From an uncultured Sphingomonadaceae bacterium (GTDB lineage: Bacteria > Pseudomonadota > Alphaproteobacteria > Sphingomonadales > Sphingomonadaceae), in assembly GCA_947488625.1 (NCBI GenBank), contig CANKZR010000001.1, positions 1,550,001 through 1,614,000 of the forward strand: 64,000 nt of DNA, read 5' to 3'. Below, piece after piece: positions 9,186 through 12,997 of this stretch. Every line of letters starts with the position of its first letter. Position 1 is the first letter of the stretch. The notes below the pieces were generated by a model. It was given only the letters and a program-made list of their open reading frames with translations. It searched no databases and had not been told where the DNA came from. Made by a program: the position numbers and the translations under genes.

Positions 9186-9641
9186 TTAAATGCTCCTGGT
9201 AAATGGGAGAATCTGCCGAAAGGAGGACCGCCTCGATCCGGAAACTCCAAAGCGTTTCCGGCTGTCAGCGTCCAAACTCCGCCTTCCTGGTTTCGCGTCA
9301 AACACGAATGTCCTGCGCCGCACAACGCCCCAGTGAACAAGTTTCACAGGTGATCGTTTCGTGTGACATTTATGAAACAATCCGTACAGCCAGCCTGTTG
9401 CGAGTACCGATGGCTTCGCGACACATTATTACCACCCTTCCAGGCCGAAGCATCCGATGCTTGCGTACGGGTCTTTGGCTGTAATCCGCGGATCTGGTGT
9501 TTGCGTCAAAAGGCATGAGTATCCTCAATTCGGCCTTAACGACATCGCGAAACCGCTTTCGGAAGCGCCGCACTAACCTCTCCTGTCCATTCTGTATTAG
9601 CGGCAGTGGGGACCGTCGCATCGAAACTTGGAGACTTGGTT
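9186..9641. other. Intergenic region between TonB receptor and Flp pilin genes
   Basis: 456 bases with no supportable gene. It must contain divergent promoters for the receptor (-) and pilin (+) genes. I see a TTAAC element at 9536-9540 upstream of the first pilin gene, and an AT-richer stretch around 9350-9440. No clear -35/-10 pair stands out. Confidence 0.6.
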
Positions 9642-9815
9642 ATGCGAATTGCGCGAAAAATCCTGGCGGACCAGACCGGCGCCACCGGCATCGAATACGG
9701 TCTGATCGCTTCCTTGATAGCGATGGCCGCCATGTCCGGCTTCAACGAACTGGGCAATGTGGTAGACGGCAGTTATGGTGACACGGCAGAGCGATACGAA
9801 GACATCGTTCGCTGA
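9642..9815 (+). CDS. Flp/Fap-type pilin (short type IVb pilin)
   Basis: A 57-residue pilin subunit precursor of the Flp family. It has a short basic leader, the processing region QTGATGIEYGLIASL where the prepilin peptidase is expected to cut after Gly, the conserved Glu-Tyr pair, and one hydrophobic helix. ATG 9642 is preceded by TTGGAGA at 9628-9634, spacing 7. A second pilin gene follows within 120 bp. No tad/cpa export genes (TadA ATPase, TadV peptidase, secretin) are in the window, so the pilus machinery would have to be encoded elsewhere. The C-terminal part is acidic (DTAERYEDIVR). Confidence 0.85.
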   Translation: MRIARKILADQTGATGIEYGLIASLIAMAAMSGFNELGNVVDGSYGDTAERYEDIVR

Positions 9816-9933
9816 AGCCACGATAGCCTCGGCGCTCACCCCTGGGCCCGTCTACACTCCAAATTAACCGAACCCGGCCATTGTGGCACCGGCGGCAATG
9901 GGGATCGCCGCGTCAGGCTACGGAGACTTCAAC

Positions 9934-10104
9934 ATGGGTATAGTAAAAGCCCTTATCGCGGATGAAACAGCGGCAACCGGCATCGAATACGGGCTGCTGG
10001 CCTCTTTCCTGGCGATGACGCTATTGGGCGGCTTCCAGGTGCTGGCCAACCAGGTCGACGATTCCTTCACCGACGTAAGCGAGAAATACGAAGACGCGCA
10101 GTAA
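9934..10104 (+). CDS. Second Flp/Fap-type pilin, atypical cleavage residue
   Basis: A 56-residue paralog of the preceding pilin, with matching tail (SEKYEDAQ versus AERYEDIVR). The leader junction reads DETAATGIEYGLLASF; relative to the first pilin (QTGATGIEY) the Gly normally found before the cut is replaced by Ala. The Glu-Tyr pair and the hydrophobic helix are kept. The ribosome site CGGAGA at 9921-9926 fixes ATG 9934. A TTAACC element lies at 9864-9869, as a TTAAC element also precedes the first copy. The pair looks like a tandem duplication that has diverged; whether this copy is processed into a pilus is open. Confidence 0.8.
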   Translation: MGIVKALIADETAATGIEYGLLASFLAMTLLGGFQVLANQVDDSFTDVSEKYEDAQ

Positions 10105-10506: not shown

Positions 10507-10800
10507 ATGGCAAATCCTGAAGCAGAGACTGGCTCGAAAACGGAAAGTGATCGCAGGGCATTCCTTGCCACGTGCGGAAAGTATGCGATTACCGTCCCAC
10601 CGGCGATGACTGTTCTTCTTTCGACGACGCTGTCTTCGCCCGCTGTTGCAAAGTCTGGTGGCGGAAACGGCAAGGGTCCAAAGGGCAACAACGGCATCGG
10701 CAACGGAGTCGACCCGCAGCCGCCCGGCAATCCGCCAGTGAATGATGCGCCAGGGACAGGTCCGGGCAATCCCGGCAACGGTGGCAAGGGTAAAATCTAG
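10507..10800 (+). CDS. Small Gly/Pro/Asn/Lys-rich protein with Tat-like leader
   Basis: A 97-residue protein. Residues 14-20 read SDRRAFL, a twin-arginine (S/T-R-R-x-F-L) motif, followed by a hydrophobic stretch to an AVA cleavage site at 46-48. The predicted mature part is 49 residues, made almost only of Gly, Pro, Asn and Lys with a C-terminal KGKI; it has one Ser (S50), one Thr and no Cys. The ribosome site AGGGG lies 9 bases before ATG 10507. It is the first gene of an apparent operon with a PqqD-like/HprK-like kinase and a nucleotidyltransferase, so it may be the substrate of those enzymes, that is a precursor peptide (inference). It could also be just a small exported low-complexity protein. 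Confidence 0.75.
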   Translation: MANPEAETGSKTESDRRAFLATCGKYAITVPPAMTVLLSTTLSSPAVAKSGGGNGKGPKGNNGIGNGVDPQPPGNPPVNDAPGTGPGNPGNGGKGKI

Positions 10801-10836
10801 GCGCGGACGCCTGGAAGGAGTGCCCGAATTCGGAAG

Positions 10837-11979
10837 ATGGCAACGATTGAGCCGCTTACGGATCGGCAGCAGCAAGTAGCGCATGAATGCCCAGACGTTC
10901 GCATCGGTTTGAGTGAACGCTTGCTTCTGCAAACGATAGAAGGACGGCAAACGGTCTTCGCCCAGAAGAGCCAACTGGTCTTTGAACCCGACGCAGCGTC
11001 TTGCGCGGTCCTGGCGCTGCTCGACACCCCCCTTCCGCTGCCCGCATTGTTCGACCAACTGTTACCGGCCTTCGGCGGCGATCGAAGAGCGGTCGCAGCC
11101 ATGCTCGTAGACTGGTCGAATGCGGGTTTGATTGATGCCTTTGCATCTGAGAATTGCGAACTCCCCTCAGCGACGGCCTGCCTGCCCGCGCTGGATGCCA
11201 CCATCGATCTACGCGTGCATGGCGAAGACACCGGTTGGTTCGATTGCTACCGCCACTTGCCCGAGCCTTCAAATTCTGGCCCATGCATTCAGATATGGCA
11301 AAGCGATGAGCTTGGCATCATCAAGGTTAACGGCGAACAGGGGCGTATCGTCCTGCGCGATATGCTCCCGGCCAGTTTCCGATATGGCCTGGTGGAATCC
11401 ATCTTGCACCGGACCGAATGCATCGTCCTCCATTGCGCAAGCCTGATCAAGGACGACCGGGCGATACTGCTGCTGGGCCAATCAGGAGCGGGCAAGTCAA
11501 CTCTTGCCATGTTTGCCAGCCAGCACGGGTTAGAACTGGGCGGAGACGATATCGCCCTGTTCGATCCGGAAAGCGGCAGTATTCTGCCCTTGGCCCTGCC
11601 GCTGACGCTTAAGCAGGGCAGTTGGCCGTTTATCAAAAGCAGTGTCTGGTGCCACGAAAGGCACGAACCCGTATTGCGCGAAGACGAGGTCGAGGTGATT
11701 TACCTGCCGCTTCCCCAGACCAACTCGCGCGCGCCTTTGCCGGTGAGAGCCCTGGTCCTGCTGGACCGCGACGATCAGACGGAGTCGGAACGATCGGCGT
11801 GGCCTAGGATCGATTGTCTGCGTCACCTCTGCAATGAATCGAGATCGCACTCGGGAACGGCCAGCGTCGAGGATATGCAGGCTTTGCTGGGAATGATGGA
11901 TAAAGCTGAAACGCTTTCCCTGCGATATGAAAACGCTGCCAAGGCGGGCGAGATGCTGGGCTGCCATTTTGGCGACTGA
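10837..11979 (+). CDS. PqqD-like domain fused to HPr kinase-like (HprK-related) domain
   Basis: A 380-residue protein. Residues ~25-105 look like a PqqD-type peptide-binding domain: a strand pair, then EPDAASCAVLALLDTPLPL, a helix, and MLVDWSNAGLID, matching the 'no-escape' pattern of PqqD/RRE domains. Residues ~120-370 resemble HprK-related kinases: VLHCASL (H199), a Walker A GQSGAGKST at 214-222, and GGDDIALFD (D237, D238), then LPLTLKQGSWPF. HprK-like kinases phosphorylate Ser or Thr on partner proteins; homologs modify lasso peptides. The linkage to an upstream Gly-rich leader peptide and a downstream nucleotidyltransferase suggests peptide tailoring (inference). GGAAGGAG at 10813-10820 is the nearest strong ribosome site. 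Confidence 0.75.
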   Translation: MATIEPLTDRQQQVAHECPDVRIGLSERLLLQTIEGRQTVFAQKSQLVFEPDAASCAVLALLDTPLPLPALFDQLLPAFGGDRRAVAAMLVDWSNAGLIDAFASENCELPSATACLPALDATIDLRVHGEDTGWFDCYRHLPEPSNSGPCIQIWQSDELGIIKVNGEQGRIVLRDMLPASFRYGLVESILHRTECIVLHCASLIKDDRAILLLGQSGAGKSTLAMFASQHGLELGGDDIALFDPESGSILPLALPLTLKQGSWPFIKSSVWCHERHEPVLREDEVEVIYLPLPQTNSRAPLPVRALVLLDRDDQTESERSAWPRIDCLRHLCNESRSHSGTASVEDMQALLGMMDKAETLSLRYENAAKAGEMLGCHFGD

Positions 11980-12997
11980 TAGAGACGCATTTGCATCCTT
12001 GTGCACGGCGCTGCAGGGGCAGGTCGCCAAAGGAACGAAATGGGAATCGCTTCTCACATTGGCCAACCGGACGCTTGTAACCCCGGCACTGGCGAACGCG
12101 CTTGCCGACAACGACCAGGTGCCTCCCGACGTGCGCGAATTTCTCGCAGCGATTGCCAGCCGCACGCTGGATCGCAACCTGGCAATGCGTCGCCAACTTT
12201 CCGAATGCTGCATGGCGCTTTCGAACTGCGGGGTCCTGCCTATCCTGATCAAAGGTGCAGCGTTCATGATTTCCGAGCCGCGCTATGTAAACGCAAGGCT
12301 CAGTACCGATCTCGATCTGGTCCTGCAGGCTGATCAGAAGGCTGCCGCGATTGCAGCGCTGCAAGCCATTGGATATGAATACGCACCGTCCAGCATTTCG
12401 CCCGACGCCGGTGTAAACCTTCAGCGCAGCAGCGACGTGGGCGGTCTCGACATCCACTACCGCCTTCGTTCGTTTCATCCCCAACGCCAATACGACGATC
12501 TTCGCCCTTACTGCGATCGCGCTTTGCTGAACGGGGCAGCGATCTGCGTGCCCTCGCGCGAACTCCAGCTGGCCATCCTGGTCGCACACGACCAGATGCA
12601 GGAGCGCGACTATTGGCGCGGACTGATTGACTTGCGGCACATGCTCGATTTGCGGGCCATCGTTTTGGCCGGTGGCAAACTGAATGAAGATATCCTGGCC
12701 GATTTGTTTCCTGAAGGGCCGCATCGCCGGGCACTGGAAACGCAACTGCTTACGCTGGAATGGGTGTTCGGTATCGCCAGGCCCATTCACGCAGATTCCG
12801 GACGCAGGGCGCGGCTGCAAGTCAGGCGGCGGCGATGGCAGATTGGCAGGGCGTGGGCTTTACCTGTTACAACGGCTGCAACCTTGATGATCGATCCAAT
12901 GCGACCACCTGATGCCGTTCTCGAAACAGGTCGGTGGCGCAGCGTTGCCCAGTATTATCGTCGGATGTTCGTGCCAGCCAAGGATACGAAGGTCTAG
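11927..12997 (+). CDS. Nucleotidyltransferase family protein (NTP_transf_5-like)
   Basis: A protein of up to 356 residues of the uncharacterised nucleotidyltransferase family. The catalytic signature is visible: LIKGAAF (K109-G110) and LSTDLDLVL, in which D128 and D130 would bind the metal. The C-terminal third is basic (RRRRWQIGRAW). The frame overlaps the kinase gene by 53 bp; the ATG at 11927 gives the longest form, and a non-ATG start nearer 11966-11995 would shorten it and lessen the overlap. Family members occur in capsule, lasso-peptide and HprK-linked clusters, usually beside a kinase as here. They are presumed to move a nucleotide or sugar-like group onto a small molecule or peptide; the reaction is not established. 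Confidence 0.75.
   Translation: MKTLPRRARCWAAILATDRDAFASLCTALQGQVAKGTKWESLLTLANRTLVTPALANALADNDQVPPDVREFLAAIASRTLDRNLAMRRQLSECCMALSNCGVLPILIKGAAFMISEPRYVNARLSTDLDLVLQADQKAAAIAALQAIGYEYAPSSISPDAGVNLQRSSDVGGLDIHYRLRSFHPQRQYDDLRPYCDRALLNGAAICVPSRELQLAILVAHDQMQERDYWRGLIDLRHMLDLRAIVLAGGKLNEDILADLFPEGPHRRALETQLLTLEWVFGIARPIHADSGRRARLQVRRRRWQIGRAWALPVTTAATLMIDPMRPPDAVLETGRWRSVAQYYRRMFVPAKDTKV

What the first reader, a model, noticed from the sequence alone, without database searches (positions are those of the whole stretch)
10507..12997. Candidate uncharacterised peptide-tailoring operon: Tat-leader Gly-rich peptide, PqqD-HprK kinase, nucleotidyltransferase
Seen: three genes in a row on one strand, the first a 97-residue peptide with SDRRAFL leader and a Gly/Pro/Asn/Lys-only mature part, the second a P-loop kinase with a PqqD-like N-terminus, the third a DxD nucleotidyltransferase; the last two overlap by up to 53 bp. 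Known: HprK-like kinases and nucleotidyltransferases of this type occur in lasso-peptide clusters, and PqqD-like domains bind RiPP leaders. HprK-related kinases with PqqD partners have been noted as a genomic association without function. Inference: the peptide is the substrate and is phosphorylated or nucleotidylated, then exported by Tat, without a lasso cyclase.
Basis: partly seen in the sequence, partly recalled or inferred. Interest (0 to 1): 0.75.

Follow-up and report, generated by a model that had tools for sequence, protein, structure and literature searches.

The report
Tat-leader peptide with a fused RRE-kinase
A small operon encodes a glycine-rich peptide with an export-type leader and two enzymes that probably phosphorylate and then further decorate it, and the same set recurs, apparently undescribed, in many soil and plant-associated Alphaproteobacteria.

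Summary
Window 10507-12997 carries a 97-aa peptide, a 380-aa kinase and a 356-aa nucleotidyltransferase (PF14907) on one strand. Of 57 named loci fetched with the nucleotidyltransferase, 57 hold the kinase (one cut by a contig end) and 55 a peptide with the same leader; gene order varies. The leader is conserved (mean identity 64%), the core is not (30%). In 74 of 74 counted leaders RR.F, G24, P32 and one Ser are invariant; that Ser is core residue 2 after a predicted AxA site. AlphaFold (pLDDT 91) gives a PqqD-type element at residues 21-95 before an HprK-type kinase. None of the window's eight scanned neighbours is a lasso gene.

Best reading: a RiPP pathway in which the kinase docks the Tat-type leader through its own RRE and phosphorylates that Ser, the nucleotidyltransferase elaborates it, and Tat exports it. 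It works like Bacillota linear polyphosphorylated peptides (PMC13381572), whose kinase modifies core Ser3, but with a different leader and a fused RRE, and without a dedicated peptidase or exporter found. Modification and export are inferred. In Mesorhizobium the module lies in a polysaccharide-type locus.

The parts
10507..10800 (+). precursor peptide gene, 97 aa
   Evidence: leader family found in 55 of 57 named loci
10507..10650 (+). leader, residues 1-48, ending in a predicted AxA (AVA) cleavage site
   Evidence: A46 and A48 both present in 69 of 74 counted leaders; cleavage not shown
10552..10566 (+). RRAFL, Tat-type twin-arginine motif (residues 16-20)
   Evidence: RRxF[LIM] in 74 of 74 counted leaders
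10654..10656 (+). Ser50, predicted core position 2, predicted phospho-acceptor
   Evidence: the only invariant hydroxyl residue: 74 of 74
10651..10797 (+). Gly-rich core (49 aa)
   Evidence: cores vary strongly between loci
10837..11979 (+). PqqD(RRE)-HprK-type kinase, 380 aa
   Evidence: H199, K220, D237, D238 in 49 of 49
10897..11121 (+). PqqD-like RRE part (residues 21-95; strands then three helices)
   Evidence: AlphaFold pLDDT 94-97 per ten-residue block; PF05402 in 20 of 49 relatives; hhalign to the genome's own PqqD, E 5.7e-6, probability 85.5
11431..11550 (+). kinase active-site stretch: His199, P-loop Lys220, Asp237-Asp238
   Evidence: 49 of 49
11927..12997 (+). nucleotidyltransferase, PF14907 (NTP_transf_5), 356 aa
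   Evidence: K109, G110, D128, D130 in 49 of 49

Best explanation
A RiPP-type (leader-guided) peptide modification and export operon. (1) The ribosome makes a precursor with a conserved Tat-type leader and a variable Gly-rich core. (2) The N-terminal PqqD-like RRE of the kinase binds the leader. (3) The fused HprK-type kinase phosphorylates the invariant Ser at core position 2, possibly more than once. (4) The PF14907 nucleotidyltransferase adds to the phosphate (a nucleotide, or a sugar as reported for PsmN). (5) The peptide crosses the inner membrane by Tat and housekeeping signal peptidase I cuts after AxA, leaving a linear modified peptide. Shown by computation here: gene linkage, leader conservation, the invariant Ser, the predicted folds, the conserved active-site residues. 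Inferred: leader binding, both chemical steps, the acceptor residue, cleavage and Tat export.
For: 55 of 57 named loci hold leader, kinase and nucleotidyltransferase, with the peptide in varying positions. Leader 64% versus core 30% mean identity over 74 peptides; dN/dS over 45 pairs from 10 Mesorhizobium loci 0.08 leader, 0.21 core. Ser50 in 74 of 74; the next hydroxyl positions are T35 (68 T, 4 S), S44 (67 S, 1 T), S41 (66 S, 2 T), T40 (66 T). Extra leader peptides lie away from the pair in genomes with one PqqD-fused kinase: G394, G447, G363, G876. PqqD-like then HprK-like architecture, pLDDT 91.2; His-Lys-Asp-Asp in 49 of 49, the set reported as catalytic in lasso-peptide kinases (passages of PMC9266682). 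In the Bacillota LPP system an HprK kinase phosphorylates core Ser3 (section of PMC13381572), and LPP clusters often lie in capsular polysaccharide loci, as this module does in Mesorhizobium. The host encodes TatC.
Against: No biochemical datum was found for this family. The Tat model TIGR01409 hits only 6 of 27 peptides, best E 0.013. Of the 9 leader-bearing genomes of the class sample, G610 shows no kinase at E 1e-10 and G618 only a short HprK-type match; the kinase-bearing contig of G575 (6.7 kb) shows no leader. L093 has both enzymes but no leader was found in 12.9 kb, L095 is cut by a contig end. Polysaccharide-type genes recur beside the module in Mesorhizobium, so the enzymes could serve a polysaccharide there. 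Leader-kinase distance correlation (r 0.82, 42 loci) also follows from shared descent, and many of the 74 peptides come from close relatives. A diverged Rhodobacterales peptide (L197), outside the 74, has a changed cleavage region. In LPP, deleting the nucleotidyltransferase changed no detectable product, so step 4 is the weakest.
Confidence: 0.6

Rival explanations
1. The kinase and nucleotidyltransferase modify something else (for example a surface polysaccharide or its lipid carrier) and the Gly-rich peptide is an exported companion protein whose leader is an ordinary signal peptide.
For: PF14907 is an uncharacterised family; cores look like structural Gly-rich sequence (G 37% of core residues). 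In Mesorhizobium and relatives neighbours recur that include a bacterial sugar transferase (PF02397), an O-antigen ligase-type protein (PF04932) and a large cadherin-domain protein; a lipopolysaccharide biosynthesis gene is annotated near the Parasedimentitalea locus.
Against: A peptide-binding PqqD-type part is fused to the kinase. The leader's hydrophobic stretch and Ser50 are conserved residue by residue across orders. The polysaccharide-type neighbours were not seen among the window's eight scanned neighbours, and the largest recurring neighbour clusters in Sinorhizobium/Ensifer and Novosphingobium are other, smaller ones (not all annotated).
Confidence: 0.2
2. The modification falls on variable core residues (Ser/Thr/Asp/Lys of the core), with the conserved leader and Ser50 serving only recognition and cleavage.
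For: Core motifs recur within clades (GNNGxGNG in 26 of 74 cores; GDxNH in 20 of 74).
Against: No core residue after Ser50 is universal: Ser occurs in 57, Thr in 44 and Asp in 65 of 74 cores, and one core (L125) has no Ser, Thr or Tyr.
Confidence: 0.15
3. The pathway is as proposed but export is by Sec (or another route), the RR.FL motif belonging to the RRE-binding determinant rather than to Tat.
For: Weak Tat model scores; the residue before RR is mostly Asp (37) or Ala (32 of 74); a Pro-Pro pair lies inside the hydrophobic stretch.
Against: RRxF[LIM] in 74 of 74 fits the SRRxFLK consensus (words of the abstract of PMC3712460 as shown in the listing); AxA site in 69 of 74; TatC present.
Confidence: 0.25

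Closest known systems
Linear polyphosphorylated peptides (LPP, lpp clusters) of Bacillota, PMC13381572 (outline, passages and sections 4, 6, 7, 12 seen)
   Same: HprK-like kinase, an NTP transferase and an RRE; no macrolactam cyclase; precursors with conserved N-terminus and variable C-terminus, sometimes several per cluster; acceptor Ser a few residues after the leader cleavage site (Ser3 there, Ser at core position 2 predicted here); patchy distribution; in some hosts next to polysaccharide genes; a separate lasso-type cluster with kinase in the same genome here too.
   Different: LPP leader is YxxPxVLxHQxIxFETxxS; here RRxFL..[C/A]G[R/K][F/Y]A....PP.....STS...AxAxS. LPP RRE is a separate protein, here fused to the kinase. 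LPP has its own SipW-like peptidase and an MsbA-like exporter; none was found beside the window's operon. LPP is described as restricted to Bacillota; this is in Alphaproteobacteria.
Paeninodin-type lasso peptides with kinase and nucleotidyltransferase (PadeK, ThcoK, SyanK, PsmK/PsmN; passages of PMC9266682 seen)
   Same: HprK-type kinase with His-Lys-Asp-Asp, in some clusters a nucleotidyltransferase partner, PqqD-type RRE.
   Different: No B2 peptidase or cyclase found in the module; phospho-acceptor there is the C-terminal Ser; the RRE is separate.
HPr-rel-A system models of NCBIfam (TIGR04352 kinase, TIGR04353 PqqD_rel_X)
   Same: TIGR04352 is the nearest named model of the kinase region (E 3.8e-14); 16 of 16 kinases of alignment A5 match it at E 0.01.
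   Different: The window kinase scores 52.5 bits against a cut-off of 200; PqqD is fused; a defined leader peptide is present.

Membership tests
LPP (linear polyphosphorylated peptides) | HprK-like kinase | tested here: met
LPP (linear polyphosphorylated peptides) | NTP transferase gene | tested here: met
   PF14907 in 49 of 49; whether LppN is the same family was not tested
LPP (linear polyphosphorylated peptides) | discrete RRE protein | tested here: not met
   the RRE is the N-terminal part of the kinase
LPP (linear polyphosphorylated peptides) | [Y/W]xxPx[L/V/I/F/A] leader motif | tested here: not met
   0 of 74 leaders
LPP (linear polyphosphorylated peptides) | SpI (SipW-like) peptidase and MsbA-like exporter in the cluster | tested here: not met
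   window: none among eight neighbours by Pfam. Relatives: 20 neighbour clusters present in 3 or more of 57 loci, 10 representatives scanned, none such; the other 10 were not scanned
LPP (linear polyphosphorylated peptides) | conserved N-terminus, variable C-terminus in precursors | tested here: met
   64% versus 30%
LPP (linear polyphosphorylated peptides) | phosphate on a Ser near the core N-terminus | not testable with these tools
   an invariant Ser is there; chemistry not measured
Lasso peptide cluster | macrolactam cyclase (C) and B2 peptidase next to the precursor | tested here: not met
   none among the window's eight neighbours; PF13471 in this genome on C2 and C4 only, the window being on C1
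HPr-rel-A system (NCBIfam) | TIGR04352 above its curated cut-off | tested here: not met
   52.5 bits against 200 for the window kinase
Tat substrate | twin-arginine motif RRxFL(K) in the N-region | tested here: met
   RRxF[LIM] in 74 of 74; K follows in 44 of 74
Tat substrate | recognised by a Tat signal model | tested here: inconclusive
   TIGR01409 weak in 6 of 27, best E 0.013, not in the window peptide
PqqD / RRE domain | PqqD-type fold and profile match | tested here: met
   (PF05402 in 20 of 49; window protein itself below threshold)

The most novel reading that the evidence does not exclude
A new RiPP class in which one segment is both the RRE-docking leader and a Tat signal peptide: the kinase's PqqD part holds the leader like a Tat-signal proofreading chaperone, and release to Tat happens only after Ser at core position 2 has been phosphorylated and capped, so that modification gates export. 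The pathway is spread through Sphingomonadales, rhizobia and other Alphaproteobacteria with freely varying Gly-rich cores, and orphan precursors elsewhere in the genome are served in trans.
Probability: 0.4. Interest if true: 0.85.

Novelty: new variant of a known kind. Interest (0 to 1): 0.7.

Why it matters
It would put phosphorylated, lasso-free RiPPs, which the one paper found describes only in Bacillota, into Gram-negative plant symbionts and environmental bacteria. It names the likely acceptor residue. It would also be a case of Tat export of a modified RiPP; the two listings I saw for that combination (2 papers; 20 listed of 164; none opened) showed no title of the kind. The fused RRE-kinase and the single invariant Ser make the idea directly testable with two genes in a laboratory strain.

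Tried and rejected
Lasso peptide cluster: rejected for this locus (no B2 or cyclase among eight neighbours; the genome holds a separate lasso-type cluster on contig C2). Families for the window peptide: none in Pfam or NCBIfam even at E 10; among 27 relatives only scattered weak matches besides TIGR01409. IMG/VR scan for the nucleotidyltransferase: 3 stretches matched a pattern, none confirmed, so a phage origin has no support. Core motif sought in 149 family genomes: 5 matched, namely the window peptide itself, three operon peptides of relatives, and one weak hit in G117 that looks unrelated. PDB sequence search: one weak P-loop match for the kinase (4eun, E 0.0012), none for the nucleotidyltransferase. 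Paper searches: no paper on this family seen in the listings (15, 75, 76 and 87 returned none; one gave the LPP paper; the library is open-licence PMC only). A leader-kinase complex was not modelled: both prediction jobs went to the two enzymes and a job folds one chain.
Full report
What is there. The window carries three co-directional genes at 10507-12997: a 97-aa peptide, a 380-aa P-loop kinase 36 bp downstream, and a 356-aa nucleotidyltransferase overlapping the kinase by up to 53 bp. Upstream lie two Flp-type pilin ORFs (PF04964, one just over and one just under the Pfam cut-off) and a TonB-dependent receptor; downstream, convergent, lepA and two GGDEF-EAL proteins; of eight neighbours scanned none is a lasso, signal peptidase or ABC transporter gene. 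Pfam gives PF14907 for the third gene (E 4.5e-22) and only weak P-loop and Hpr_kinase_C matches for the second. NCBIfam puts the second nearest to HprK-related kinase A, at 52.5 bits against a cut-off of 200. The peptide matches nothing.

Conservation. A kinase search over 199 family genomes matched 77 at E 1e-5, mostly over the kinase part only; besides the window four matched over most of the length, and each of these has a leader-type peptide upstream and the nucleotidyltransferase downstream. A leader profile matched 8 of 396 genomes of the order and 9 of 385 of the class. In all 8 of the order a peptide lies beside the enzyme pair. In the class sample 6 of 9 have it beside the kinase (in G863 only a kinase fragment at a contig end is seen); G854 has the pair about 50 kb from two of its three leader copies; in G610 no kinase was found at E 1e-10 and in G618 only a short HprK-type match. 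A named collection, one genome for each of 84,980 species, gave 57 loci by the nucleotidyltransferase: Qipengyuania, Allopontixanthobacter, Novosphingobium, Sphingobium, Sphingosinicella, Sphingomonas, Sinorhizobium/Ensifer, Mesorhizobium, Inquilinus, Amaricoccus, Microvirga and others. All 57 have the kinase (cut by the contig end in L095; in L132 the nucleotidyltransferase is split over two frames) and 55 have the leader peptide; in L093 and L095 none was found. The nucleotidyltransferase was the bait, so only the kinase and peptide counts are results. The peptide is first in 17 loci, between nucleotidyltransferase and kinase in 2 (Microvirga), last on the same strand in most of the rest, and on the opposite strand in L090, L098 and L132, with a second, opposite-strand copy in L101 and L113 (the script's label 'first' counts 19 because it includes the two Microvirga loci, and its 'middle' for L110 is an ORF-boundary artefact).

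Co-occurrence. In the same 385 genomes the kinase profile matched 11 at E 1e-40; two (G091, G504) match only from residue 104 or 112 on, so lack the PqqD part, and were set aside. Of the 9 left (G863 counted although split over two contigs) 7 carry the leader. In G807 a cut-off leader begins just after the kinase at the contig end (E 1.4e-4), which would make 8. Fisher p is 5e-12 for 7 and 4e-14 for 8, without phylogenetic correction.

The peptide. From 87 collected peptides I counted 74 after dropping 13; many are from close relatives. R16, R17, F19, G24, P32 and S50 are invariant; L20 is in 72, P31 in 73, A46 in 72, A48 in 71. C23 is C in 47, A in 26 and T in 1. S50 follows AxA by one residue and is the only invariant hydroxyl. 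The distance P32 to S50 is 18 in 73 of 74. The cores are Gly-rich (37% G), 16-113 residues long, and differ: GNNGxGNG in 26, GDxNH in 20. Mean pairwise identity is 64% in the leader and 30% in the core. dN/dS is 0.08 in the leader and 0.21 in the core over 45 pairs from 10 Mesorhizobium loci, and 0.05 and 0.24 in the one usable Ensifer pair, so these are real genes and the leader is the more constrained part. Several genomes carry further copies of the leader with other cores away from the pair (G394, G447, G363, G876), as expected if one enzyme pair serves several precursors.

The enzymes. AlphaFold models from 49-row alignments are confident (kinase mean pLDDT 91.2; nucleotidyltransferase 93.5). 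The kinase shows strands at 21-49 and helices at 53-95, a PqqD-type element, ahead of a part that Foldseek matches to PEP carboxykinase (E 3.8e-8, TM-score about 0.45) and HPr kinase (E 7e-4), and at E 6e-3 to ThcOx (that ThcOx bears an RRE is recalled, and which part aligned was not shown). PF05402 is reached by 20 of 49 relatives and the profile aligns to the genome's own lasso-type PqqD. H199, K220, D237, D238 are in 49 of 49, matching the His-Lys-Asp-Asp set described for lasso kinases. The nucleotidyltransferase resembles LnuA and ANT(2'')-Ia folds only weakly (best E 1.1e-3) and keeps K109-G110 and D128-x-D130 in 49 of 49, with D in 31 and E in 18 at position 175.

Genomic setting. In the genus, lepA was found in 38 of 40 genomes; of the 30 lepA loci handed out, 3 (window, G324, G881) have the nucleotidyltransferase within the 1.5 kb next to lepA. 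In L170, L171 and L174 the pilin region lies close to lepA with the operon missing. So the module is patchy, at one site in this genus. G324 has two leader peptides in tandem. In the 57 named loci the neighbours differ between clades. In Mesorhizobium and relatives several neighbour families recur (the largest in 24 loci, which include one Sphingobium and Amaricoccus); scanned representatives are a cadherin-domain protein, a bacterial sugar transferase (PF02397), an O-antigen ligase-type protein (PF04932), an APS kinase, an ATP sulfurylase, a sulfotransferase and Na/H exchangers; 10 of the 20 clusters with 3 or more loci were scanned. In those species the module therefore sits in a polysaccharide-type region, as LPP clusters often do in Bacilli. 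This keeps the polysaccharide rival alive. The window's genome has a separate lasso-type cluster on contig C2 with PqqD, B2, an HprK-type kinase and its own PF14907 gene, which parallels the co-occurrence of LPP and paeninodin clusters reported for Bacilli.

Mechanism and comparison. In LPP clusters of Bacillota the kinase LppK places one to four phosphates on core Ser3, a stand-alone RRE recruits the precursor, a SipW-like peptidase cuts, and an NTP transferase of unknown role is present (PMC13381572, sections seen). The present module has the kinase, the NTP transferase and a Ser two residues into the predicted core, but a wholly different leader (0 of 74 fit the [Y/W]xxP motif), a fused RRE, and no peptidase or exporter gene found beside the window's operon. 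The twin-arginine leader with AxA offers housekeeping Tat and signal peptidase I in their place. It works like an LPP pathway and is not filed as a member. Tat dependence, leader binding, phosphorylation and the second step are predictions. Confidence: substrate relationship about 0.75, Ser50 as acceptor about 0.6, Tat about 0.65, further transfer by PF14907 about 0.5.

Noticed in passing
genome contig C2, L001 and L162 (C2 about 351.4-356.5 kb): A separate lasso-type cluster in the same genome: PqqD, B2-like protein (PF13471), HprK-type kinase, an asparagine-synthase-like ORF (my reading) and a second PF14907 nucleotidyltransferase.
   Followed up: partly
L064:4697-7141 (G363): A more distant HprK/nucleotidyltransferase pair (18% identical to the window in both) lies convergent, within about 50 bp, to an extra leader peptide, hinting that other HprK systems may also use this leader.
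   Followed up: partly
L108-L137, Mesorhizobium and relatives: Many cores in these loci share a motif of the form GNGWGDKNHxHxGPPG, their leaders have Ala or Thr where others have Cys23, and the module lies among sugar transferase, O-antigen ligase-type, sulfotransferase and cadherin-domain genes.
   Followed up: partly
L108:3658-4692 and L111:3698-4732: Just upstream of the kinase a 344-aa protein begins with another twin-arginine-like stretch (MDRRSFMG...); not analysed.
   Followed up: no
L197:3360-3656 (Parasedimentitalea plasmid): A diverged relative of the leader peptide before a kinase and nucleotidyltransferase on a 58-kb plasmid; its cleavage region differs.
   Followed up: partly
window 9606-9815 and 9883-10104: Two tandem small Flp-type pilin ORFs (PF04964) directly upstream of the operon.
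   Followed up: partly
L170, L171, L174 beside lepA: Sites in the genus where the operon is absent and the pilin region lies close to lepA.
   Followed up: partly
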